From Myxococcales bacterium (GTDB lineage Bacteria; Myxococcota_A; Polyangia; Polyangiales; Houyiibacteriaceae): DNA of 64,000 nt. Location of the stretch: the NCBI GenBank assembly GCA_024640845.1, contig JAHEEE010000145.1:83193-147192 (forward strand), given 5' to 3'. The notes beneath the pieces are model-generated. The model was not told the origin of the DNA. It was given only the letters and a program-made list of their open reading frames with translations, and did no database searches. Below, piece by piece: positions 10,773 to 39,861 of the stretch. Each line of letters begins with the position of its first letter. The stretch's first letter is position 1. The position numbers and the translations under genes are program-made.

Positions 10773-12077
10773 CTACGTGCCGGCGAGCATGTCGGCCAGC
10801 AACGTGGCGAGCCCGAGGAACGTGAAGAAACCGACGACGTCGGTCACGGTCGTCAGGATGATCGAGGATGCGGTCGCCGGATCCCGCTTGAGCTTCACCA
10901 AGATGATGGGGATCAGTGCACCTGCCGCCGAAGCGGCCACCATCGAGATGATCATCGCGACGAACATCACCAGCGAGAGCCCGAGGTTGCGGGCCCAGAC
11001 ATAGACCCCGATCGACGTCACGACGGCGATCGCAACACCGTTGACGAGTCCGACTGTGAGCTCTTTCATCAAGACCCGAAATCCCTGAGATACTCGTATT
11101 TCGCGGAGCGCAAGGCCACGCATGGTGACGGCCAGCGCCTGGGCGCCAGTATTGCCCGACTGCCCCGCCACCACTGGCAGAAGCACCGCGACGGCCGTGA
11201 AACGCGCAATCGTGCTTTCGAACAGACCGACGACCGACGCGGCTAGAAACGCGGTGACCAGATTGATGTTCAGCCATGGTAGCCGGCTCCGCACACCGAC
11301 CCACGGCGGCGACAGGGCGCGTTCTTCGCTCGATCCACCGACCATTTGCTGCAGATCGGTGATCGCATCCTCTTGGGCAGCTTCGAGCAGGCCTGCCTGG
11401 CGAATGATGCCGACGACGTGGCCCTGTAGGTCCACGACCGGCAGGCTCGACAACCGATATTTGTTCAGAATCTCGACGACCTCTTCTCGCGGAGTCATCG
11501 GCTCGACGAAGACCGCACGCGGGCTCTTCAGCTCACCGAGCGACTGGTGCGGTAGAGCGCTGACCACGTCTTGCAGACGGACCACGCCGTCGAACGCCCC
11601 TTCTTCGTCGGTGAGAACGAGATCGGCGATCCGCCGCTCTCCGAGCTCACGAATTCGTTCCAACGCCGCTCCGGCAGTGGTCTCGCTGTCGAAAACAGCG
11701 ACCCGCGCATCCATCAGGTTGCCCGCGGTACCAGCCGGGAAGGTCAGTATGCTTGCGATCTCCTCGGCCAAGGAGCTCGGTAGGCCACCGAGCAGTCGGG
11801 TCCGTGTTTCGTCGGAAAGGCGCGCCAGCAGGTTTGCCGCAAGTGCGGGGTCGAGGACCGCAAGAAGCTGGGTGGCCTCCTCATCTCCGGCGGCGCTGAG
11901 GATCGCGGCGGCATGATCAGGCTGAATGTAGCGAAGTACTGTCGCTCCGGTTCGGGTCGGGACCCCAGCGAGCGCGCGCCCCCCTTCCTCGGGTGTTGCA
12001 CTCTCAATCTCGCGAGCCGCCTCTCCCGGATAGAGGGATAGGAACTGCTGCACGAGGCTCGCGGTTGCGCTGCTCAT
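10773..12077 (-). CDS. mgtE: MgtE-family magnesium transporter
   Basis: 434 residues from the ATG at 12077. Order of parts: MgtE N domain of helical repeats (about 1-125, DPALAANLLARLSDETRT), a CBS pair (about 130-250, including FVEPMTPREEVVEILNKYRL and SSLPVVDLQGHVVGII), then five membrane helices (about 270-434) with the pore signature PVVAGQSGNTGAQALAVTMRG. MgtE channels carry Mg2+ inwards and are closed by Mg2+ bound to the N and CBS domains. Its start overlaps the stop of the soluble MgtE-N/CBS gene by four bases, so the two are translated together. Confidence 0.95.
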   Translation of the reverse strand: MSSATASLVQQFLSLYPGEAAREIESATPEEGGRALAGVPTRTGATVLRYIQPDHAAAILSAAGDEEATQLLAVLDPALAANLLARLSDETRTRLLGGLPSSLAEEIASILTFPAGTAGNLMDARVAVFDSETTAGAALERIRELGERRIADLVLTDEEGAFDGVVRLQDVVSALPHQSLGELKSPRAVFVEPMTPREEVVEILNKYRLSSLPVVDLQGHVVGIIRQAGLLEAAQEDAITDLQQMVGGSSEERALSPPWVGVRSRLPWLNINLVTAFLAASVVGLFESTIARFTAVAVLLPVVAGQSGNTGAQALAVTMRGLALREIRVSQGFRVLMKELTVGLVNGVAIAVVTSIGVYVWARNLGLSLVMFVAMIISMVAASAAGALIPIILVKLKRDPATASSIILTTVTDVVGFFTFLGLATLLADMLAGT

Positions 12078-12937
12078 GACTTCCTCCGCGGGGTTCCCGA
12101 GGGACCCAGTAGGGCGGAAGTCGCCCACTCGAACAACCCCTTGAGGCCAAGACCGTAAAGCTCACCGAGCGCGGCAGCGGTCTCCCTACTTCCGTCGTCG
12201 AGTCGCGTCTCCAGCAGCGTTTCCTCGAGCTTGCGGACCGACTCGTAGCGGATGGCGCCGACGAAGCGTCCGTCGGCGCCCACGACCGGCAGAGCATGGA
12301 AGCGCTTCCATCCCGGATGAACGATGATCGACTCCCGACTCGCGCGCGCCGAAACCGACTCGACAGAGTGGATGGCGATCATGCCGAGAAGCTGCTCGGG
12401 CCGGGCGGCCATCAGCTCCCGGAGGTTGACGACTCCAATCAACTTCTGGTCCTCAGCCACGACGTACACGTAATACAGGGCGTGTTGCGGGCTCTGGCGC
12501 AGCCGTTCCAAAGCCTCGGCGGCCGAAGCATTTTCGGCGATCGAGAGCACTGCCGGGTCCATCAGCGCGCCCGCTGTCCCCTCTGCGTACCGCAGCAACC
12601 GCCTGAGCGCCTTCTGAGCTGTTGCCTCGAGCGAATCGACGATCGCGGAGCGGTGACGGGCATCCATCGCTCGCAGGATGGCGGCGGCTGCGTCCCGCGG
12701 GGTCTCCTCGAAGGCGGGTGCGGCTTGTGGGGCTGGCACGAAAGCCAGGGCGGTGGCCGCAGAATAGGGCGTCAACCACCGCAGCAGCTTCGATAGGGCG
12801 TCCACCGGAAGGTCGAGGATCGCTTCGGCCAGATCAGAGGCTGGCAACAATTCGAGGACGCGCGCGGCTTCGGCAGGGTGGGCCGAGACGAAACGATCTC
12901 GAAGCTTTGCCTCAAGCGCCACGGTCGGCCTCTTCAC
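12074..12937 (-). CDS. Soluble MgtE-N plus CBS-pair protein without membrane domain
   Basis: 287 residues. It contains an MgtE N-type helical domain (about 1-125) and a CBS pair (about 130-245, with GALMDPAVLSIAENASAAEAL and FHALPVVGADGRFVGAIRYE) but stops before any MgtE pore helix, so it is cytosolic. It is a paralogue of the regulatory half of the neighbouring MgtE. Start is a GTG at 12937; GTG 12922 is possible. The 5' end overlaps the upstream MscS gene by 26 bp and the 3' end overlaps mgtE by 4 bp. A regulatory partner of MgtE is inferred from this placement. Confidence 0.85.
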   Translation of the reverse strand: MKRPTVALEAKLRDRFVSAHPAEAARVLELLPASDLAEAILDLPVDALSKLLRWLTPYSAATALAFVPAPQAAPAFEETPRDAAAAILRAMDARHRSAIVDSLEATAQKALRRLLRYAEGTAGALMDPAVLSIAENASAAEALERLRQSPQHALYYVYVVAEDQKLIGVVNLRELMAARPEQLLGMIAIHSVESVSARASRESIIVHPGWKRFHALPVVGADGRFVGAIRYESVRKLEETLLETRLDDGSRETAAALGELYGLGLKGLFEWATSALLGPSGTPRRKS

Positions 12938-13751
12938 TCAGAAGCGTGCAGGGGCTCTCGGCGAAATGCCGTGCGGAGATCGAAAGCTCACCTTCCGCGT
13001 TCTCGAGCACCACCGAAGTCCTAGTCGTTCTCACGATTCTCCCTTGCTCCGTGCCGATCCGGACGACTTGCCCAATTCGGTAGGACTTGTTGACGTAGTG
13101 CATGGCCAAAATGTCGGCCACGACCTCTCGGGCGCCGAGCCCGAAAGCCAACGCCGCTGCGCCGAGCGCCGCGGATAGCACGATGAGAAACACGTTCGTG
13201 AGCAACGAGACATCGAGGCCCAGCTGGCCGGCGGCGATGAGCGCCGCGGCAGCCACGATCGACACCTGCGTCAGTCGAGCCAGGTTCCGAGCCTGCGGCG
13301 CTGCACCGCGGCTCGCCGTTTGAAGAATGGCGTTGCGGGCGAGGCGGCCCGCGACGATTCCGCCAAGGACGAGCACTGCGGCGACCGCGAGTCTCGGCAG
13401 ATAGCCGGCGAGGTTGTTCATCCACGTGCTGAAGAGAGGGACGTCCAGCCGATCGATCGCCATCACCGCAGCAACGGCTAGAACGAGCCAATACAGGCCA
13501 CTTGCAACGATTTGTCCAGCTCGCTGATCGTCGACGGTTTCGGTCCAAGCCTGTCGAGTCAGGCCGGGTGGCAGGCGGGCCGCGATCCTCCGAAACGAGC
13601 CGAGGACCGCCCTTCTCAAGACCCACGCCAGTCCCCATCCGACGACCAGAACGATGACTGCGGTCACGAGATTTGGCAGCGCGGTAATCAAGGCCTGCTT
13701 GGCGCTCGCCACCCAAGCGACGAGTTGTTCCACCGTGTCGTCGAGTCCCAT
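12912..13751 (-). CDS. MscS-like channel with conserved TM helices
   Basis: 279 residues from the ATG at 13751. The N-terminus LPNLVTAVIVLVVGWGLAWVL and the later YLPRLAVAAVLVLGGIVAGR are the paired 'conserved TM helix' segments found in MscS relatives; a third segment, LSAALGAAALAFGLGAREVV, is the pore-like helix. A short beta domain (YRIGQVVRIGTEQGRIVRTT) ends the protein, with no large C-terminal vestibule. It is the first gene of the MscS / MgtE-N-CBS / mgtE operon. Ion selectivity cannot be predicted. Confidence 0.85.
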   Translation of the reverse strand: MGLDDTVEQLVAWVASAKQALITALPNLVTAVIVLVVGWGLAWVLRRAVLGSFRRIAARLPPGLTRQAWTETVDDQRAGQIVASGLYWLVLAVAAVMAIDRLDVPLFSTWMNNLAGYLPRLAVAAVLVLGGIVAGRLARNAILQTASRGAAPQARNLARLTQVSIVAAAALIAAGQLGLDVSLLTNVFLIVLSAALGAAALAFGLGAREVVADILAMHYVNKSYRIGQVVRIGTEQGRIVRTTRTSVVLENAEGELSISARHFAESPCTLLSEEADRGA

Positions 13752-13822
13752 CAGATCCCTGCAGCCTCCTCGGGGAGTGTACCTCACCCGGGCCCTCGAT
13801 AGGGCGAGTTGTGAGTCACACT

Positions 13823-13834
13823 CGCGATATCGCG
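13823..13834. promoter_or_regulatory. Perfect 12-bp palindrome CGCGATATCGCG in divergent intergenic region
   Basis: The 123 bp between the divergent MscS and kinase genes holds this perfect palindrome. Near it are GTGAGTCAC (imperfect dyad with a central G, 13811-13819) and CACGTG just after. Such clustered dyads suit a regulator site, but no known operator consensus is recognised and no clear promoter boxes were seen. Confidence 0.3.
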
Positions 13835-13874
13835 TGCACGTGTAGGGCGGCGGTGTCAGATTCAGCGTCGATCG

Positions 13875-14735
13875 ATGAGCCGGAACCCAATGCAACGCCC
13901 GAGGTCCAGCCCTCCGAACCACGCTCTCAAGAACAGGCGCAGGCTCGGCAAGTATCGGATTCGCCGGCGTGTTGGCGCCGGTGCGTTCGCAACCGTCTAC
14001 GAAGCTTACGACACAATCGAGGGGATTTCGGTCGCACTGAAGATCCCGCATCCCGACCAGGTCGAAAAAGAGTCGCTAAATCTCATTCACAAGGAGGTCC
14101 GGCTGACGGCGCGGCTCGATCACGACAACATCCTGGCCTTGCGCAGCGCGATGATGATCGATGGCCATTTCGTGATTGCGACGCCGCTCGGTGAGCAGAC
14201 GCTGACCGACCGCCTTCACTATCGTCTCGGACCAAAGACCGCCCTCTCTTACACGGAGCAGTTGCTCGATGCTCTCGCCTATGCCCACGAGCAGCGAGTC
14301 ATTCACTGCGACATCAAACCGGACAACGTCATTCTGTTTCCCGAGAACCACGTTCGACTCGCCGACTTCGGGATTGCCAAGGTCTCACTCAGAACCCGCA
14401 CCATCGTGGGGTCGGGCCAGGGCACGGTCGGCTACATCGCGCCCGAACAGGCGATGGGTAAGCCTTCGTTTCGCTCCGATGTGTTCTCGATGGGTCTGTT
14501 GATCTACCGAATGTTTGCCGGCGTGCTTCCCGAGTGGCCCTTTGATTGGCCCCTACCAGGCGCGGAGCGCCTACGTCGAACGGTCAGCCAGGACTTCATC
14601 GCGTTCCTTCGACGATCCATCGAGGTTCGCGAGCGTAAGCGGTTTCGGGACGGAGTGCAGATGCAGCGCGCATTCGAGAAGGTTGCGCCGCGGGCACTCC
14701 GGAGTACGACGCGCGGCAGGAGAACCTCGCCATGA
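13875..14735 (+). CDS. Hanks-type serine/threonine protein kinase
   Basis: 286 residues, nearly all kinase domain. Glycine loop GAGAFATVY at 34-42, ATP-binding Lys56 in VALK, catalytic loop HCDIKPDN at 144-151 (Cys replaces the usual Arg before Asp), DFG at 164-166 and APE at 189-191. No transmembrane helix or sensor domain follows, so it is a cytosolic kinase. Lack of the Arg in the HRD motif means it would be a non-RD kinase, usually not controlled by activation-loop phosphorylation. It overlaps the PP2C gene by ATGA, forming an opposing kinase/phosphatase pair. Confidence 0.95.
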   Translation: MSRNPMQRPRSSPPNHALKNRRRLGKYRIRRRVGAGAFATVYEAYDTIEGISVALKIPHPDQVEKESLNLIHKEVRLTARLDHDNILALRSAMMIDGHFVIATPLGEQTLTDRLHYRLGPKTALSYTEQLLDALAYAHEQRVIHCDIKPDNVILFPENHVRLADFGIAKVSLRTRTIVGSGQGTVGYIAPEQAMGKPSFRSDVFSMGLLIYRMFAGVLPEWPFDWPLPGAERLRRTVSQDFIAFLRRSIEVRERKRFRDGVQMQRAFEKVAPRALRSTTRGRRTSP

Positions 14736-15550
14736 GCGAGACCCACATCTTTACGGATGTGGACATGCCACACGGCGAATGTTTCGAGTTTTCCGGCCTG
14801 CGTGCGGGAGTGCTCAGCATGCGCAAGCCCGGTCGCGACGGACCTAACGAGGATGCTGCCGCTCTGATTCGCCTAGGCGACGCCGCCATCGTCGCGGTGC
14901 TCTCCGATGGAGCCGGAGGGCACCCGGGCGGGGCCGAGGCCGCTGGGCTCGCAGTTCGGGCGGTCTGCGATGCGGTCGCGAAGCTCGGTGATGATCCGAC
15001 GGAGCTCCGCAGCGCGATCATCAACGGGTTCGAATCCGCGGATCGCGCTATCGCGGGGCTCGGTACCGGCGCGGCGGCCACCTTGGCGGCGGTCGAGATC
15101 CAAGGCTCCCGAATGCGCGCCTATCACGCCGGCGATTCGATGGTTCTCGTGACCGGGCAGCGCGGGCGCATCAAATGGCTCACCATTCCTCATTCCCCGG
15201 TCGGCTACGCCGTCGAAGCCGGGCTCATCGACAGGAGCGATGCGCTTCATCACGAGGACTTACACCTCGTTTCCAATCTCTTGGGCGGGCAAGACATGCG
15301 CATCGAGCTCGGCGCAACGCTGAGCTTGGCTCCCCGAGATCGCATCGTCGTCGCCAGCGACGGTCTCAGCGACAACGTGCACCTGGGCGAGATCGTCGAG
15401 GCCGTGCGAAAGGGGCCGCTTGACCGGGCGGTCAATACGCTGGGCGCTCTTGGTAGAACGAGGATGGAAGCGCCTGCCGAAGGGGTGCCCTCGAAACCGG
15501 ACGACCTCACGCTGATCGCGATTGGCCAACGCGAGGGTTCGATCTCGTGA
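14732..15550 (+). CDS. PP2C-family serine/threonine phosphatase
   Basis: 272 residues. Metal-binding and core PP2C motifs are present in order: PNEDAAALI (about 38-46), VLSDGAGGHPGG (57-68), GAAATLAAVEI, YHAGDSM, a late VASDGLSDN and KPDDLTLIAI near the end. It should reverse Ser/Thr phosphorylation, most directly that made by the kinase whose gene it overlaps by 4 bp. The next gene starts 37 bp downstream, so the aspartoacylase-like enzyme and ATP-grasp ligase may share the transcript. Confidence 0.93.
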   Translation: MSETHIFTDVDMPHGECFEFSGLRAGVLSMRKPGRDGPNEDAAALIRLGDAAIVAVLSDGAGGHPGGAEAAGLAVRAVCDAVAKLGDDPTELRSAIINGFESADRAIAGLGTGAAATLAAVEIQGSRMRAYHAGDSMVLVTGQRGRIKWLTIPHSPVGYAVEAGLIDRSDALHHEDLHLVSNLLGGQDMRIELGATLSLAPRDRIVVASDGLSDNVHLGEIVEAVRKGPLDRAVNTLGALGRTRMEAPAEGVPSKPDDLTLIAIGQREGSIS

Positions 15551-15587
15551 TGGCCGAGGGCCTCGCGCGCACTCAGGACGGTGCGGT

Positions 15588-16655
15588 ATGATGGCTACAC
15601 CAGCGACCATGGAACGAAATCTACACAATGGCGCGGCGGGACCGGTGCATCGGCGACGCGAGCTCGTGATCGGGGATTTCCCCCGGGGAGAGCTCTCGCG
15701 CCTCTACATCGATTTAGTCGCAAACGGCCTGGCGCAGGACATTCTGCTGCCACTCCTCGTCGCGCGTGGGAAGAAGGACGGCCCTGTGTTCGGGTTGACG
15801 GCTGCCGTGCACGGAAACGAGCTCAATGGCATTCGCGTCATCCACGATCTCATGCATCACATCGAGCCGCAGCAGCTGAGCGGCACCGTCGTCGCATTGG
15901 TCGTCGTGAACGTGCCGGGGCTTCACCGCCATCAGCGCGAATTCGTCGACGGCGGCGACCTCAACCACATCTTTCCCGGCCGTCGCGACGGAAACGTTGC
16001 CGAAGTCTACGCACAGCGAATCCTCGATCGAATCGTCAGCCGCTTCGACTACTTGGTCGACCTGCACACCGCGAGCTTCGGCCGCGTGAACTCCGTGTAC
16101 GTCCGTGCGGACATGACGCACGCTACCACTGCGACCATGGCCTACCTGCAGCGTCCGCAGATCATCGTTCACAACCCACCATCCGACTACACGCTGCGTG
16201 GTGCCGCGATGGATCTCGGGATTCCGTCGATCACGCTCGAGATCGGCGATCCACAAAGATTTCAACCCGGCTACGTTCGCTCTTCGCGCATCGGTCTGCG
16301 AAGAGTGCTGGCGGCTGCAGGCATGCTGGCTCGACGCCCCGTCTCCGAGGGACCAGAACCGGTCCTGTGCGAGCGCTCGGGTTGGATGTATACCGATCGC
16401 GGAGGGCTCCTCGAAGTGCTCCCCAAGTCGACCGACATGGTCCGCAAGGGCGAGCGGGTGGCCGTGTTGCGGAACGCGTTTGGCGACGTGATTCGCGAGT
16501 ATGATGCTCCACGCGATGGCATCGTCATCGGCAAGAGCGTGAACCCAGTTGGGCAGACGGGCGCCCGCATTCTGCATCTAGGCTCGGTGGCGCCGGACCA
16601 GCACGGCTTCGTAAGGCGCGCCGAGGGGCGGCCCAACTTGAGGGCGGACGCGTGA
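15588..16655 (+). CDS. Succinylglutamate desuccinylase / aspartoacylase family zinc hydrolase
   Basis: 355 residues from the ATG at 15588. The zinc site is intact: AAVHGNELNG gives H75 and E78 (H-x2-E) and VDLHTASFGR gives H160. GDLNHIFPG matches the family's DLNR-FPG box with His in place of the usual Arg, which contacts the substrate carboxylate, so substrate choice may differ. A C-terminal beta domain (about 265-345) with RSGWMYTDRGGLLEVL and PRDGIVIGKS is typical of the stand-alone AstE/AspA-like hydrolases. It cleaves an N-acyl or peptide amide. The stop overlaps the ATP-grasp start by one base. Confidence 0.88.
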   Translation: MMATPATMERNLHNGAAGPVHRRRELVIGDFPRGELSRLYIDLVANGLAQDILLPLLVARGKKDGPVFGLTAAVHGNELNGIRVIHDLMHHIEPQQLSGTVVALVVVNVPGLHRHQREFVDGGDLNHIFPGRRDGNVAEVYAQRILDRIVSRFDYLVDLHTASFGRVNSVYVRADMTHATTATMAYLQRPQIIVHNPPSDYTLRGAAMDLGIPSITLEIGDPQRFQPGYVRSSRIGLRRVLAAAGMLARRPVSEGPEPVLCERSGWMYTDRGGLLEVLPKSTDMVRKGERVAVLRNAFGDVIREYDAPRDGIVIGKSVNPVGQTGARILHLGSVAPDQHGFVRRAEGRPNLRADA

Positions 16656-17632
16656 TGCAAATCGCGTTTGTCGTAAACGAGTGGCGAGAGCCAAGCGCCG
16701 AGCAAACGACGACTCTGCTGATGAGCTCGGCGATTCAGCGCGGGCATGGTGTCTTCGTGTGCGGTGTCGGCGACCTAACGGAGAACGAAGAAGGCAAGCT
16801 GTCCGCGACCGGCTGTGCACTGGAGACCGGCCCAGGGCCCGCCGTGAGTGAACAACTGGCGAATCTGAGCGCGACTGCGCAGACCATCGACGACTACGAT
16901 TTGTGCGTCGTTCGTACGAACCCGAGTCGAGACCACGATCGCCGGACGCAGCATGTCGCTGTGCTCCGTCTTCTCGAGCGACTCGAAGAGCGTGGCGTTC
17001 GTGTGGTCAACCGCCCCCGTGGGTTGTCGCGCGCTCTCACCAAACTGTCGTTGCTCGACCTACCGAAAGAGCTCCGGCCCATCACCATCGTAACGCGAGA
17101 TCCCGACGAGGTTGCAGAGTTCGTGCGCCGAAGACCCGGCCGTTCGGTGATCAAGCCGCTCGAAGGAACACGAGGCCGGGACGTCTTCGTGCTGGGGCCT
17201 GACGACGCTGGGGTGAACTCGAAGCAGATCGTCGATGTCGTGCTTCGGCAAGGCTATGCGGTCGTGCAGGAGTTCGCAGCGGGCGCGGAGAACGGCGACG
17301 TCCGGGTGACAGTGGTCAACGGGAAGATTCTCGAAGTCGACGGTGAGCCCGCTGCGGTGGCTCGCGTGCCCGGCCGAGGCGACTTCCGTAGCAACCTCCA
17401 CGCCGGTGGTTCCGCAAGTGCGGCTACGGTAACGCAGGAAATGCGGACGGCTGTCGAGCGCATCGCGCCTCTCCTCTCGCGCGAGGGCTTGTTTCATGTC
17501 GGTGTGGATTTCGTGGGTGGGCAGATTCTCGAGCTCAACGTATTCAGTCCTGGCGGGCTCTTCCCTGCCGAGCGTATCTACAAGCGCGATTTCGGCGGCG
17601 CGGTCATCGAGGCGCTCGAGCAGCTTCGCTGA
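16655..17632 (+). CDS. ATP-grasp ligase, glutathione-synthetase/RimK-like
   Basis: 325 residues; the ATG at 16655 overlaps the upstream stop (TGATG), and a GTG one codon earlier is possible. N-terminal pre-ATP-grasp domain with VVRTNPSRDHDRRTQHVA, then VVNRPRGLSRALTKLSLL, the nucleotide loop SVIKPLEGTRGRDVFVL, AVVQEF, RSNLHAGG and the metal-binding end ILELNVFSPGGL. This is the glutathione-synthetase layout and should form an amide bond with ATP. No GshA is nearby and the partner gene is a deacylase, so glutathione synthesis is not the obvious role. It is clearly paralogous to the C-terminal half of the fusion protein at 37.8 kb. Confidence 0.88.
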   Translation: MQIAFVVNEWREPSAEQTTTLLMSSAIQRGHGVFVCGVGDLTENEEGKLSATGCALETGPGPAVSEQLANLSATAQTIDDYDLCVVRTNPSRDHDRRTQHVAVLRLLERLEERGVRVVNRPRGLSRALTKLSLLDLPKELRPITIVTRDPDEVAEFVRRRPGRSVIKPLEGTRGRDVFVLGPDDAGVNSKQIVDVVLRQGYAVVQEFAAGAENGDVRVTVVNGKILEVDGEPAAVARVPGRGDFRSNLHAGGSASAATVTQEMRTAVERIAPLLSREGLFHVGVDFVGGQILELNVFSPGGLFPAERIYKRDFGGAVIEALEQLR

Positions 17633-17635
17633 AGC

Positions 17636-19147
17636 TCAGGAACGGGGTGGTTCCGCCAAAACGGCCTTGCCGCCGCGGGAACCACGCTTGATCTCCTCTA
17701 GAAGTGCCGGGTCGTCGTCGAGCGAACGAAACAAGCCGAGACGCAGCCCCCCCTTTTGTGTGAGCAGGGTCGCTGTCATCTTGTCGATCGCGACGGCTGC
17801 GAGCACGCTCTGGATGTAGGCTTCGATGAGGTCGTCGGCGCCGATGCCGATCGTGTTGAAATCTCTACGGTCCATGAGGAGAAGCCGTTCGGTCGAGGCG
17901 GCCCACGATCCGTCGGAATGGCGTTCCGATAGGTTCGTTCCGAGGACTTCCCAGGAAGAATCACTGCCGTCGAGCTCCGAGGGCAGCGGCCGCCTCGAGC
18001 GCCGTGCATAGATCGCCAAGGGGCGAAAGCCGTTGGAGCCGCCGCACACCATCATTCGAAGGTCGGCTACGTAGATGTGTCCACGTCGATCGGGAATGGT
18101 CCCCACGTGGTAGAAACGGCCCGCGCGTTCAACCGAGCTCCACGTGTAGTTGCCGATTAGACTTTGCACGACGTAACGGTCGTAGGGGTGCTCCATCTCC
18201 ATGAAGCGGTCGAGCTCCCTTTGGTTGACGATCGTGAATACGCCCTGGCCCGCATTGCTATATGGAATCTTCACGACTGCGTGTCCGCCAAATCGCTTCA
18301 CCCAAAGTGGCACCTCTCGTTTGGCGACGTCACCGATGGTTTGAGGGGTTCTGATCTGGAGCCCGGATGCCTCGAGCTCGGCGTTGTAGATGTCGTATGC
18401 TTTCATGGCGACGAGCTTGTTTCGTCCACCAGCGAGACAGGTTGCCACCGGGTTCAAGATGCGCGTCCGCGTGCGAATTGGTATGCGATTCCAGGGCCTC
18501 TGCGTGACGTATCGAAACGCGGCGCGCATCGCTCGCCAGCTGCCGGTCTCGTCTCTGATCTCGAGCAATCCGTCCGTGAAACGTGCCGGGGGGTTGCTAC
18601 TGTCGGCGGGAAACGGCGTGAGAAACACGCTTTCCCCCGTGAGGTCCGCGATGGCGGCCGCGTAACCGGATGCCTCCATGTAGTTCTTGTCGAAGAGCAC
18701 TGCTAGGTCGCCCGACGCGGCCCCGCGTTTGGCGATCAGCGGTAGGAAGGCCGTCTCGATGAGTCTCCGATAACCGGCCTGCTCGTCGTCGTCCGACTGG
18801 ATCGGCATCGACTTATTGCCGGAGGGACAGGAGTTGGTCTCGACGACGACGAGCCGACGGTTACCTGCGGCAGTCGTCGTGCAGAATAGGTCTGCACCCG
18901 CCCACCGAAAATGCTTCGGCACGTACGCGAGGACTTCTTCCAGGAATGCCGGATCGACGCGAGGGTTCAAGTGGCAATAGCGATTGATGATCCTGTTGTT
19001 CGACATCCGCAGAAAGAACGAGACGAGCGGATGAATCTGAGCGTTGAGCACGCGGGCATAGAAGTGGTTGCGTGGCTCGAAAGAACCGGGAGCGATCACG
19101 GCGGCATGCTGACTGTCTAGCGAAGCGCGAGAGGCGGTGATGTCCAT
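17636..19147 (-). CDS. Probable circularly permuted ATP-grasp-like protein, unknown substrate
   Basis: 503 residues from the ATG at 19147 (a start at 19189 is possible). No exact family name is recalled, but the motif order is telling. LVVVETNSCPSGNKS (about 99-113), like the metal-binding E-x-N plus PSG box of circularly permuted ATP-grasp enzymes, comes before RILNPVATCLAGGRNKLVAM (229-248) and the ATP loop VVKIPYSNAGQGVFTI (291-306), then VVQSLIGNYTW. In ordinary ATP-grasps the E-x-N box is last. It is convergent with the standard ATP-grasp gene, 3 bp apart, and lies downstream of an alpha/beta hydrolase on its own strand. Amide or ester ligation is inferred. Confidence 0.6.
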   Translation of the reverse strand: MDITASRASLDSQHAAVIAPGSFEPRNHFYARVLNAQIHPLVSFFLRMSNNRIINRYCHLNPRVDPAFLEEVLAYVPKHFRWAGADLFCTTTAAGNRRLVVVETNSCPSGNKSMPIQSDDDEQAGYRRLIETAFLPLIAKRGAASGDLAVLFDKNYMEASGYAAAIADLTGESVFLTPFPADSSNPPARFTDGLLEIRDETGSWRAMRAAFRYVTQRPWNRIPIRTRTRILNPVATCLAGGRNKLVAMKAYDIYNAELEASGLQIRTPQTIGDVAKREVPLWVKRFGGHAVVKIPYSNAGQGVFTIVNQRELDRFMEMEHPYDRYVVQSLIGNYTWSSVERAGRFYHVGTIPDRRGHIYVADLRMMVCGGSNGFRPLAIYARRSRRPLPSELDGSDSSWEVLGTNLSERHSDGSWAASTERLLLMDRRDFNTIGIGADDLIEAYIQSVLAAVAIDKMTATLLTQKGGLRLGLFRSLDDDPALLEEIKRGSRGGKAVLAEPPRS

Positions 19148-19215
19148 GATTGAGGCCGCGATGCTGCGCCTGGAACAGAGGCCTTGCAAGCGAGAAAGCT
19201 GAGAGTCACCGCTTT

Positions 19216-35819: not shown

Positions 35820-37802
35820 CTATTCGAGGAGCTCGTAGACGTTGAGGCCCTGGCGTACCAGCTCCAGACGTTCCTGACACTCTGGGCGGGTGACGAAACG
35901 TGGCAAGAACTTCGGCGGGTCGAGCACGTGACGGCTCTGCAGCTCGCGCACGATCGGAATGTGTTTGGCCGCGATCTTTCCGACGAAGAGCGGCTCGAAC
36001 TCGCCCCCGTTTCGCAAATATTCGAGGACGGTCAGGAGCCCTCGTAGGTAGATGCAGTCCTTGACGAGGCCGCCGCCGCGGAAGACACGGATCGTGATGT
36101 TGAACGCCTGTTGCCGAGAGAAGCCGTATCGACACAACAGCCGAAACACATCGATGAACGACGCACCATTGGTGAGCGCGTCGACACCAATCACCCGCGC
36201 CGCAAGGGTACGTAGCCTTGCGGGGGTCATTCCGCCGGCAAGGTACTCGGCGAGGACTGCGATTCCCTCTTGGAGCTCTTCGTACCCTGCGAAACCGTTC
36301 TGAAGCTGCTTGAAACGCTGTGCCTTGCCGTTGAAATACGTGACTAAGTGCGTTCCGATCTCATGCTGGATCAACGCATCGACGCGGTTGAGTGGAATCC
36401 TCGAGCGCGAGGGAACTAACAAACGCCCCTTCGATACCATCAGGCCCGAGCTGACACCGGGTACGACTTCGACCGTCCCATCGACCCCGTCCCAGATCTC
36501 GCGATAGTAGGCGACTTCCTCCCTTGCTTGCTTCGCGAACTCCTCGACCGGAATCGTGCCGCCGCCAGTAGGGGATCGCGTCGTGCTGGAGATCTGCTCC
36601 AGAATCCCTTCAGCGGAGCGCAAGAGCTCCTTCGAGACCCGCCCGTAGAGCAAGATGCTTCCTAGAAGAAACCTTGGGGTGCCACGGTCGTGCAGCATCG
36701 TGAGCTGCCGATCGAGCTCCTCTTGCTTCTGGCTGAAGAGGAACGAGATCGTCGGGTCCTCAATTTTCTCTAGCGGAATCGAGTAAAGCTTGCGCTTTGC
36801 GATGATCGGGTCGACGGAAAGAGGGCGATACCGAAACGGCGGCACCTTTTCGAAGTGGCTCTTGCGAAAACCATTCCACACCGCCTCGGTGTTGATCGGG
36901 TTCACTTCGAGCAGCAGATCGAAACGAGATGCGACCTCGTCGAGTCGGGCGTCGACATCCCACACGGCTCTCACGAGCGCGCGGCGCCCCAACGACTGGA
37001 AGTTTTTCGGCCGAAGGCTCGTGTCACGCTCGGCGAAATGAAAGAAAGCGTGCTTCAGGGCCGGACCGAGTCGACGCCGGAGATTCTTGAGGATGGTAGG
37101 GTAGACTTCGCCCCCACCCACCATCTGGTACACCGGCTCGACCTCGATCGTGATCTGAGCGCAGCCAAGCCGTCGCATCGCCTCGCTCTTCAGGAGGGGG
37201 CGTTCACGATGAGGAAATTCGCGGACGTTCTGGACGACTTCGACAGCAGCGCGCCGTCCACCGACTTCGATCGCTTTGAGATGCCGTTCCAGCACCTCGA
37301 TGATGGAGTCGATGTTGTAGCCTGGCGCCGAGCTGAACAACCGAAACGCGGGATGGGGATTGTCCTTCGAGCTCTCGACGACCGGAGGATGCTCCGGCGG
37401 ACGAGAACAGATCGCAACGATCAAGAATTGGTTCCCAAACGCCGGACGAACCGTCTCGGCCAGCGTTCGGACCAGCATCGCCGCCCGTTTTCGGCCGCCT
37501 TTCGCCGCAGAGGTGTAGAGATAGGAGGCCTCTGTGGTCACTAGCTGATTCGTGCCGGCGTCCCGTCGGTCTTCAGGCTCTACGTGCACGGCGATGAATG
37601 GCAGCGGCCGGTCGACGTGGAGCCTTCCATAGCCAGGCAGGGTTCGTCGCAATCGTGCCCCGCTCGCGACTCGCTCTCCGATGGCTTCAACGATCGCCTT
37701 GGTTTTCGAAGCGGCGGTCTTGTCCGACAGAGGCGCCGACTCCTTCTTCGCTCTCGGGCCCGACTTGTCGGGGCGTGCCGCTCGGGATCCCTTGCCGTCC
37801 AT
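35820..37802 (-). CDS. DUF1704 / QEGLA-motif zinc metallopeptidase-like protein
   Basis: 660 residues. The C-terminal half has the metal site HEIGTH (480-485, HEXXXH) followed by LQEGIAVLAEYLAGG (510-524), the motif behind the name 'flavohemoglobin expression-modulating QEGLA protein'. The DUF1704 domain is the same as in the mammalian tubulin carboxypeptidase MATCAP, so a carboxypeptidase-type activity is plausible. The N-terminal half (about 60-330) has FGase-like acid and His patches but no sure assignment. It follows the formylglutamate-hydrolase::ATP-grasp gene by 4 bp, so the two are one operon. Confidence 0.85.
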   Translation of the reverse strand: MDGKGSRAARPDKSGPRAKKESAPLSDKTAASKTKAIVEAIGERVASGARLRRTLPGYGRLHVDRPLPFIAVHVEPEDRRDAGTNQLVTTEASYLYTSAAKGGRKRAAMLVRTLAETVRPAFGNQFLIVAICSRPPEHPPVVESSKDNPHPAFRLFSSAPGYNIDSIIEVLERHLKAIEVGGRRAAVEVVQNVREFPHRERPLLKSEAMRRLGCAQITIEVEPVYQMVGGGEVYPTILKNLRRRLGPALKHAFFHFAERDTSLRPKNFQSLGRRALVRAVWDVDARLDEVASRFDLLLEVNPINTEAVWNGFRKSHFEKVPPFRYRPLSVDPIIAKRKLYSIPLEKIEDPTISFLFSQKQEELDRQLTMLHDRGTPRFLLGSILLYGRVSKELLRSAEGILEQISSTTRSPTGGGTIPVEEFAKQAREEVAYYREIWDGVDGTVEVVPGVSSGLMVSKGRLLVPSRSRIPLNRVDALIQHEIGTHLVTYFNGKAQRFKQLQNGFAGYEELQEGIAVLAEYLAGGMTPARLRTLAARVIGVDALTNGASFIDVFRLLCRYGFSRQQAFNITIRVFRGGGLVKDCIYLRGLLTVLEYLRNGGEFEPLFVGKIAAKHIPIVRELQSRHVLDPPKFLPRFVTRPECQERLELVRQGLNVYELLE

Positions 37803-37806
37803 GCTG

Positions 37807-39690
37807 CTACATGATCGCCATGCTGGCGTTATCGAACTGGCGTCCGTAGTACTCCATCGCGCGCGTCTTGCGCTCGAGGGCCTGCATCACCGCCTCGGAG
37901 AAGTTCACGTTCTCGAACTTCTGTGCACTTCCAAGCCCGCCTGGGCTGAACACGTTGATCTCCATCAACTTGTCACCGACGATGTCGAGGCCAACCAAGA
38001 ACATCCCATCACGCATGAGCTTCGGCCTGACGATCTCCACGAGCCTGAGCGCTTCCGGGCCGATTTCGGCGCGCGCCAGGCGCCCGCCTGCGTGTATGTT
38101 CGATCGCATGTCGCCACCTTGACGCACGCGCCGGAAGGCAGCGTACTTTCCGCGATGACGAAGGGCCTCGCCATTCATCACGAACAAGCGCGTATCGCCC
38201 TTCGCCGCCTCGGGTAGGTACTCCTGGGCGATCATGAAGCCATCGCGTGAGACGGAGTCGATCATTTGGTTCAGGTTGGGCACGTCGTCCGGTCGGACGA
38301 GAAAGACCCCGGCTCCCCCCGAGCCTTGGAGGGGCTTGAGCACGATGGTCCCACGATCCTTGGCGAAGGCTTTGATGTCCGCGCGATCTCGAGAAATGAC
38401 GGTCAACGGGCGGACTTCTGCCGGAAAGGTCTGGAAGTACATCTTGCTCGTCGCTCTCGACAGTCCGTCGGGATCGTTCAGAACGACCACTCCATGGCGC
38501 ATGGCTACCCGGCCGAACTGGATGCCGATGTTGGCCGCCCACGGTCGAGCGATTGCATCGGTCGAAGGGTCGTTCCGAAGCATGAGGACGTCGAGGTCAT
38601 CCACGGTCACCCGCTTTTCAATCGCGGCTTTCCCCTGAAGGTCCTTCAGGAACGATGCCCCGTTCTTGTAAATCTGCTTCGGGACCGACCTCGCGTTGGC
38701 GCGGATCTTCTCGTCAGCGTCATACGCGAAGTCGCCGACGCCCATGAGCCACACATCGTGCCCCATCTGGCGTGCCCGCATCGCGAGACGAACCGTGGTG
38801 TATCCCGCTTGCTCCGTCATCACATCGTTGACTACGAAACCGAGGCGCATCGCGCGGTGGGGCGCGCCTGTGCCCTTCTTCAGCTTCTTCTTCGGCTTCT
38901 TCATGGCTTTGAGTGCCGCCAGGACCGGCTCAACCGTGGATGCGAGCGCTCGCTTGATCTCTTCCATCGCCTCGCGGTCGGGTTCTCCGGTCCATTCATC
39001 CATGAAGAATTTCTTCACTTCGATGGCGAGGACACAGCCGGTATCCGGGAAATTCTCATGAACCCACTGTGGGAGCTGTCGTCCGACGAACTTCACGTTC
39101 TCTCGCACGTCCAGCCGTCGCCCTTGAAAGTCGTACTTGGAGAGAGCCTCCATGAATGCATCGACGACGGGCGCCCACTGGGCCCGGTTCATCGTGCCGG
39201 TGCCGACATTGACCTCCGGGTTCTTCTCGGGGTCGGCCGCCGGACCGTCCGATCCGTCTCGACGATGGTTGTAGCTGTGGAGGTCGAAGACTACGAAGCC
39301 GCCATATTCTCGCTCGAGACCGACCAGCACCTCTCTGAGCGCCGTATAGTATGCATCGTATTGGGCCAGGGATCGGTCGACGATGGCTTGTGGGAGGGGT
39401 TCTTTCCAAATATCGAGACCCCATGCATCATCCGGACCGAGATAGACCGCTTCGTGTCGTGCCCGGTTGAGGTCGACTTCGAAGCGAGAGTGCTGGGCGA
39501 TGAAGCGGGTCGGCGCAATCGACGTCCATTCGCCGGTAAACGGATCCTCTTCGCGGAGGCGATCTTGATCCGAGAGCTTGGCCAGGTCGCGCACCTCCGG
39601 GCGAAGCTCATGTCCGTTGTGTGACGCAACGGCCACGAAGGGGCCTTCACCCAATACTTGAGTCCATGCGCGTTCAAAGGCCTCCTGCAT
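37807..39690 (-). CDS. N-formylglutamate amidohydrolase::ATP-grasp ligase fusion
   Basis: 627 residues from the ATG at 39690, which has GGAGG eight bases upstream; an ATG at 39723 is weaker. Residues about 1-265 are an N-formylglutamate-amidohydrolase-like domain: SHNGHE, RFEVDLNRAR and VVFDLHSYNHRR. A Lys-rich linker (KKPKKKLKKG) leads to a glutathione-synthetase-like ATP-grasp (about 280-605): LRNDPSTDAIARPWAANIG, IVLKPLQGSGGAGVFLV, MIAQEYLP, MRSNIHAGG and LMEINVFSPGGLGSA. One chain therefore carries an amide-cleaving and an amide-forming domain. The ligase half is a paralogue of the 16.7 kb gene. Confidence 0.88.
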   Translation of the reverse strand: MQEAFERAWTQVLGEGPFVAVASHNGHELRPEVRDLAKLSDQDRLREEDPFTGEWTSIAPTRFIAQHSRFEVDLNRARHEAVYLGPDDAWGLDIWKEPLPQAIVDRSLAQYDAYYTALREVLVGLEREYGGFVVFDLHSYNHRRDGSDGPAADPEKNPEVNVGTGTMNRAQWAPVVDAFMEALSKYDFQGRRLDVRENVKFVGRQLPQWVHENFPDTGCVLAIEVKKFFMDEWTGEPDREAMEEIKRALASTVEPVLAALKAMKKPKKKLKKGTGAPHRAMRLGFVVNDVMTEQAGYTTVRLAMRARQMGHDVWLMGVGDFAYDADEKIRANARSVPKQIYKNGASFLKDLQGKAAIEKRVTVDDLDVLMLRNDPSTDAIARPWAANIGIQFGRVAMRHGVVVLNDPDGLSRATSKMYFQTFPAEVRPLTVISRDRADIKAFAKDRGTIVLKPLQGSGGAGVFLVRPDDVPNLNQMIDSVSRDGFMIAQEYLPEAAKGDTRLFVMNGEALRHRGKYAAFRRVRQGGDMRSNIHAGGRLARAEIGPEALRLVEIVRPKLMRDGMFLVGLDIVGDKLMEINVFSPGGLGSAQKFENVNFSEAVMQALERKTRAMEYYGRQFDNASMAIM

Positions 39691-39861
39691 ACTTCGCTCC
39701 TCCCCGATCAAAAAATCAGACATCTGTTGTCCCCGATCGCCGCTGACTTCGCAACCACATTACTGCGCAACGCCTTCTCTATCGCGCGGACAATTCCGCT
39801 GGGGCCGTGTTAGCGTCGCGCCATGGCGACTCAGTCTGACCAAGTGTTCTAGGAGGCGAGC

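What the first reader, a model, noticed from the sequence alone, without database searches (positions are those of the whole stretch)
13875..17632. Kinase, PP2C phosphatase, zinc deacylase and ATP-grasp ligase in one tight run
Four same-strand genes with junctions of -4, +37 and -1 bp encode opposing kinase/phosphatase and opposing amide-cleaving/amide-forming enzymes. The aspartoacylase-like enzyme keeps its zinc ligands but has His for the substrate-binding Arg. This looks like a reversible amide modification under phosphorylation control, with unknown substrate.
Basis: partly seen in the sequence, partly recalled or inferred. Interest (0 to 1): 0.65.

Follow-up and report, generated by a model that had tools for sequence, protein, structure and literature searches.

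The report
Amide-bond ligase–hydrolase module, missing fifth gene
Four neighbouring genes in a myxobacterial genome are the edge of a module, found across many bacterial phyla, in which one or two ATP-driven ligases would make an amide bond and a zinc enzyme could cut one; its central ligase belongs to a family that Pfam and NCBIfam do not recognise, and its product is unknown.

Summary
The four genes are there as described, but the run is not the conserved unit. No Pfam or NCBIfam model names it. AlphaFold (pLDDT 91) and its motif order make it a circularly permuted ATP-grasp ligase, nearest in fold to a putative gamma-glutamylcysteine synthetase, glutathionylspermidine synthetases and eukaryotic glutathione synthetase. 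P517 relatives occur in at least seven phyla. Of 113 loci examined, 92 carry the zinc deacylase beside P517 and 48 also the glutathione-synthetase-like ligase. The exact four-gene order was found only in this genus (2 genomes; one has a SET-domain gene inserted). Kinase and PP2C sit beside the deacylase in a second phylum too (Halobacteriovorax), so phosphorylation control is plausible but optional. The His-for-Arg change is real and tracks the glutathione-synthetase-like partner (22/25 with, 2/32 without; hold-out 20/21 against 1/3), though mostly by descent. Best reading: an amide synthesis/hydrolysis module for a small peptide-like or amine conjugate, not glutathione. The substrate is not identified.

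The parts
13875..14735 (+). KIN: Ser/Thr protein kinase domain protein, 286 aa (HCD in place of HRD, DFG present); optional regulator
   Evidence: Pfam Pkinase 132.8 bits; sequence; orthologue in G001 (78% identical), none beside the block in G004
14732..15550 (+). PP2C: PP2C-type phosphatase, 272 aa, metal-site motifs present; optional regulator
   Evidence: Pfam PP2C_2 57 bits; kin of solved bacterial PP2C enzymes; 80% identical in G001
15588..16655 (+). DEAC: AspA/AstE-type zinc amidohydrolase, 355 aa; zinc ligands H75, E78, H160, catalytic E218
   Evidence: Pfam AstE_AspA_cat 110.8 bits; nearest NCBIfam model DoeB 71.5 bits, far under its cut-off; profile finds DoeB and 3cdx structures
15966..15968 (+). 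codon of residue 127 of DEAC, His at the place of ASPA Arg71
   Evidence: ASPA numbering from PMC10998430
16652..17632 (+). GRASP: glutathione-synthetase-like ATP-grasp ligase, 326 aa (start GTG 16652 or ATG 16655)
   Evidence: Pfam GSH-S_ATP 130.2 bits; PRK12458 280.6 bits, cut-off 408; E. coli GshB 1gsa E 3e-26
17636..19189 (-). P517: circularly permuted ATP-grasp ligase, the conserved core gene; true start may lie downstream of the TTG at 19189 (homology is firm from about residue 32)
   Evidence: no Pfam or NCBIfam hit; weak ATP-grasp hits among relatives; AlphaFold pLDDT 91.4, pTM 0.92; fold matches 3k1t Z 16.5, eukaryotic GSHS, GspS

Best explanation
The conserved unit is an amide synthesis and hydrolysis module. 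P517, a circularly permuted ATP-grasp ligase, activates a carboxylate with ATP and joins it to an amine (fold and motifs shown by prediction; reaction inferred). In many genomes a second ATP-grasp ligase (GSHS-like here, RimK-like elsewhere) adds a further amine or amino acid to that product (inferred). DEAC, with a complete zinc site, cuts an amide in the same compound, either to recycle it or to trim a precursor (inferred). DEACs without a second ligase mostly keep the Arg that in ASPA contacts the substrate; those with the GSHS-like ligase mostly have His, as expected if the carboxylate next to the cut bond is itself capped by the second ligase (inferred from covariation). Here and in Halobacteriovorax a kinase and a PP2C phosphatase were added, probably to stop ligase and hydrolase from running against each other (inferred). 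The product is not glutathione, since separate gshA- and gshB-type genes exist in this genome. I think a small peptide-like or amine (perhaps polyamine) conjugate is the likeliest product.
For: P517 profile finds 259 loci in genomes of many phyla. Of 113 P517 loci, 92 have DEAC within 6 kb, 80 on the same strand, 48 have all three. In 57 relatives 14 genomes carry full-length P517, 14 carry class I DEAC, 13 carry both. P517 model: pLDDT 91; Foldseek's 12 matches under E 0.001 are all of the ATP-grasp or GSHS/GspS type; best VIA match 3k1t Z 16.5, 329 residues. P517 has E-T-N-S-x-P-S-G near the N-terminus, before K307, N312-A-G-Q-G and D376-L-R; RimK has E-V-N-S-S-P-G at its C-terminal end, so the order is permuted. 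Residue 127 against GSHS-type partner: 22/25 and 2/32, p = 1.5e-10 uncorrected for descent; hold-out with the prediction written first: 20/21 and 1/3 (p = 0.03). gshA- and gshB-type genes elsewhere. Kinase-PP2C beside DEAC in L099 and L128.
Against: The residue-127 association is mostly shared descent: His falls in a few clades and the test on independent pairs has too few pairs to be significant. P517 occurs without DEAC near it in 21 of 113 loci, some cut by contig ends. No substrate follows from the fold; ATP-grasp enzymes are diverse. The kinase-phosphatase link rests on few lineages and was counted after the fact. In the window P517 is on the other strand, so co-transcription with the run is excluded here, and no promoter or terminator could be called.
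Confidence: 0.55

Rival explanations
1. The module modifies proteins: the ligases add amino acids to a protein side chain or C-terminus, as RimK does to ribosomal protein S6, and DEAC removes them. A SET-domain protein methyltransferase and the kinase-phosphatase pair act on the same or a linked target.
For: RimK-like partners in 12 loci that lack the GSHS type. SET-domain genes, about 0.1 per Mb here, lie within 4.1 kb of P517 in 6 loci of four named phyla, none further out; about 0.1 expected; five of these genomes hold only one SET gene. The window genome also carries a GSHS-like ligase next to a MATCAP-family peptidase.
Against: No candidate target protein is shared by the neighbourhoods. 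SET is absent from most P517 genomes of this family and could act on another molecule. P517 resembles small-molecule ligases of the glutathione type most.
Confidence: 0.2
2. A polyamine conjugate cycle like glutathionylspermidine synthetase/amidase: P517 joins a peptide or acid to a polyamine and DEAC is the amidase.
For: GspS, YgiC and YjfC are among the fold matches. The module is followed by an agmatine-deiminase-family gene in L038 and by an agmatine-deiminase-SET fusion in L057, and lies beside a GNAT-CN-hydrolase gene with some likeness to N-carbamoylputrescine amidase in L099 and L113.
Against: Only two of 113 loci have the deiminase and two the hydrolase. P517 hits no Pfam model of GspS. 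Most DEACs without a second ligase keep the Arg, which suits an amino acid rather than a polyamine.
Confidence: 0.2
3. It makes or degrades a compatible solute (small peptide or N-acyl amino acid) for salt stress.
For: Named cultured hosts are largely marine or saline genera such as Enhygromyxa, Plesiocystis, Saprospira, Neolewinella and Halobacteriovorax (habitats from my own knowledge). DEAC is nearest to DoeB of ectoine breakdown. MscS, MgtE and CorA genes lie near in some loci.
Against: Channel genes are scattered at varying distance and not clearly enriched; habitat was not tested against a control set.
Confidence: 0.15
4. The four genes form a real regulatory operon and P517 is a bystander.
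For: Tight junctions in the window; same order in G001.
Against: Order not found outside the genus; G004 has P517-GRASP-DEAC without kinase and PP2C; P517 and DEAC stay together across phyla.
Confidence: 0.05

Closest known systems
Glutathionylspermidine synthetase/amidase (Gss) and its kin YgiC, YjfC
   Same: Permuted ATP-grasp ligase coupled to an amide hydrolase; fold match
   Different: Hydrolase here is an AspA/AstE-type zinc enzyme, a separate gene; P517 hits no Pfam model of that family; product unknown
Putative gamma-glutamylcysteine synthetase 3k1t (Methylobacillus) and eukaryotic glutathione synthetase
   Same: Best fold match of P517, Z 16.5 over 329 residues; a GSHS-like gene often follows
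   Different: 12% identity; no NCBIfam hit for the window protein; gshA- and gshB-type genes are elsewhere in the genome
N-formylglutamate amidohydrolase / GSHS-like ligase / MATCAP-family (QEGLA) operon
   Same: A GSHS-like ligase paired with an amide hydrolase; one copy lies in this window at 35820-37802 and 37807-39723
   Different: No P517 and no AspA/AstE enzyme; different hydrolase families
DoeB, N-acetyl-diaminobutyrate deacetylase of ectoine breakdown
   Same: Closest NCBIfam model of DEAC; same zinc site
   Different: 71.5 bits against a cut-off of 402.7; DoeB keeps the Arg (LNR) where DEAC has His
GAK-system ATP-grasp enzyme
   Same: Weak likeness of GRASP (29 bits)
   Different: Far under the cut-off of 300

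Membership tests
ATP-grasp ligases (P517) | ATP-grasp fold | tested here: met
   AlphaFold model pLDDT 91; Foldseek and VIA matches are ATP-grasp enzymes
ATP-grasp ligases (P517) | Mg/ATP residues: E-x-N, Lys, Gly-rich loop, D-x-R | tested here: met
   E117, N119, K307, N312-G316, D376, R378 invariant or nearly so in 66 sequences
ATP-grasp ligases (P517) | ligase activity | not testable with these tools
   needs an assay
Any named Pfam or NCBIfam ATP-grasp family (P517) | curated model match over cut-off | tested here: not met
   no family for the window protein; relatives give only weak hits, best E 0.00025
AspA/AstE superfamily (DEAC) | catalytic domain model and zinc ligands H-x-x-E and H, catalytic E | tested here: met
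   PF24827 110.8 bits; invariant residues
DoeB, AstE or AspA equivalogs (DEAC) | curated equivalog cut-off and Arg71 equivalent | tested here: not met
   71.5, 24.5 and 25.3 bits against 402.7, 305.65 and 180; His at 127
Glutathione synthetase (GRASP) | equivalog cut-off | tested here: not met
   TIGR01380 172 against 299, PRK05246 187 against 272, PRK12458 280.6 against 408; a gshB-type gene elsewhere scores 195 bits with PF02955
Bacterial PP2C phosphatase | domain model | tested here: met
   PF13672 57 bits, cut-off 24
Ser/Thr protein kinase | domain model | tested here: met
   PF00069 132.8 bits, cut-off 31.7; PASTA-kinase equivalog cut-off not met
Anti-phage defence system | defence models for the core enzymes | tested here: not met
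   none for DEAC, GRASP, P517; the kinase's hits (best PD-T4-6, 164 bits) follow the kinase domain

The most novel reading that the evidence does not exclude
P517 founds an unrecognised ATP-grasp ligase family that, with DEAC and a second ligase, makes and turns over an undescribed amide-linked metabolite or protein tag in many phyla, at times under kinase-phosphatase control and linked to SET-domain methylation.
Probability: 0.4. Interest if true: 0.8.

Novelty: new variant of a known kind. Interest (0 to 1): 0.6.

Why it matters
A ligase family conserved at about 55-60% identity across phyla, without a Pfam or NCBIfam model and tied to one hydrolase, points to an undescribed compound or modification that a few enzyme assays could identify. 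It also gives the case a concrete handle: one residue of the hydrolase predicts which second ligase is present.

Tried and rejected
Four-gene order as the conserved unit: rejected. His127 as a mark of P517 linkage: my first idea from about 15 sequences, rejected with 69; it tracks the GSHS-type partner instead. GRASP as this organism's glutathione synthetase: rejected. PP2C and kinase enrichment by comparing near and far flanks: not significant (p = 0.20 and 0.22); only the comparison with genome density is. My written prediction that PP2C lies within 5 kb was broken once, by a weak hit in L174. Plasmid copies: none. Defence system: no support. Papers on ATP-grasp with aspartoacylase, desuccinylase or DUF1704: none in the library; the amidoligase review that I recalled is not held, so whether it describes this module is unchecked. 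No PDB sequence match for P517 (best E 0.41).
Full report
Observation. The four genes are present as reported and their domains are well over curated cut-offs. Junctions are as given if the ligase starts at ATG 16655. The window is from a Myxococcota genome of the same genus as the metagenome bin Myxococcales bacterium SG8_38: G001's contig C10 has the length of LJTN01000004.1.

The missing gene. Next to the ligase and convergent with it, with 3 bp between, lies a 517-aa ORF without any family hit. A search of 58 relatives with the deacylase showed that this ORF, not the kinase or PP2C, is the steady neighbour. Its profile finds 259 loci in the genome collection, at 53-84% identity for the best 80, in Myxococcota, Bdellovibrionota, Bacteroidota, Cyanobacteria, Chloroflexota, Acidobacteriota and Firmicutes. 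In 379 genomes of the window's phylum 58 carry it, with a sharp gap between hits and non-hits. Among 57 relatives, 14 have full-length P517, 14 have class I deacylase, 13 both; the exceptions are G009, a draft of 80% completeness, and G020.

What P517 is. The AlphaFold model (pLDDT 91.4, pTM 0.92, 66 sequences) matches ATP-grasp proteins: by Foldseek, glutathionylspermidine synthase-like 3n6x and eukaryotic glutathione synthetases; by VIA-align, 3k1t at Z 16.5 over 329 residues, clear of LysX/ArgX, D-Ala ligases, eukaryotic GSHS and GspS at about 12-13.6. Sequence motifs agree: the E-x-N motif stands before the ATP-binding lysine and glycine-rich loop, whereas in RimK it closes the domain. So P517 is a circularly permuted ATP-grasp protein by fold and motif; its reaction is inferred.

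The module. The Bacteroidota version of the second ligase is also of the GSH-S_ATP family. The commonest Myxococcota order is P517-DEAC-GSHS. In the window the P517 gene is on the other strand.

The substituted residue. Position 127 of the deacylase is the place of ASPA Arg71, one of the residues said to interact with the substrate (PMC10998430). It is His in 22 of 25 deacylases with a GSHS-type partner and in 2 of 32 without. A prediction written beforehand held in 20 of 21 new loci with the partner, against 1 of 3 without, one edge-cut locus left aside. A tree shows His in the main Myxococcota/Cyanobacteria clade, a Saprospira/Neolewinella clade and one lone row; independent pairs mostly point the same way but are too few for significance. 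I read it as a link between hydrolase specificity and second ligase, with shared descent as the main caveat.

Kinase and phosphatase. The pair lies beside the deacylase in the window, in G001, and in two Halobacteriovorax-group loci, L099 and L128, with overlapping or abutting genes; Pfam confirms both in L099. PP2C fused to a cyclic-nucleotide-binding domain follows the module in L059 and L066. PP2C density in 12 of these genomes is about 1 per Mb, so about one PP2C is expected in the 0.98 Mb searched and five genera have one (p = 0.003). This count was made after seeing the cases, and near-against-far flanks give p = 0.2.

SET-domain genes. In G001 the gap between PP2C and deacylase holds a SET-domain gene on the other strand. 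Six loci from Myxococcota, Bdellovibrionota, Bacteroidota and Chloroflexota have one within 4.1 kb of P517 and none lies further out. At 0.1 SET genes per Mb about 0.1 were expected. One is fused to an agmatine deiminase and ends a P517-DEAC-RimK run (L057). This is unexplained and is the best argument for a protein target.

Not glutathione. The window genome and 24 relatives, with or without P517, all have gshA-type (PF04107) and GSH-S_ATP (PF02955) genes; the window genome's gshB-type gene is on another contig.

Verdict. The core is P517 plus deacylase, usually with a second ligase; kinase and phosphatase are add-ons. The parts belong to known superfamilies; the combination and the P517 family are not named in the libraries searched, hence a new variant of a known kind (ligase-hydrolase modules).

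Noticed in passing
window 35820-39723 (-): A second ligase-hydrolase operon: N-formylglutamate amidohydrolase fused to a GSHS-like ATP-grasp ligase, followed by a MATCAP-family (QEGLA) peptidase-like gene, about 20 kb from the finding.
   Followed up: partly
L032:8092-8745; L099:8093-8566; L061, L069, L089, L057: SET-domain genes within 4.1 kb of P517 in several phyla, far above their genomic density.
   Followed up: partly
L178, L179, L181: GNAT-CN-hydrolase fusion genes lie directly beside SET-domain genes even where no P517 is near.
   Followed up: partly
L030, L031, L017, L018 and L032:14971-17185: A second deacylase class (about 33% identical) paired with a RimK-type ligase; near the P517 block in G001 and G004 but not found in the window genome.
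   Followed up: partly
window 10773-14051 (-) against L033:1750-4734: Two MgtE-type genes and a mechanosensitive-channel gene flank the kinase side here but the P517 side in G004, so the block looks inverted between the two genomes.
   Followed up: no
window 12074-12937 and 10773-12128 (-): Two overlapping MgtE-like genes, the first holding only the N-terminal and CBS domains and no transporter domain.
   Followed up: no
L097, L099, L111, L114, L124, L128, L130: A LysR-type regulator directly upstream of P517 in Bdellovibrionota.
   Followed up: partly
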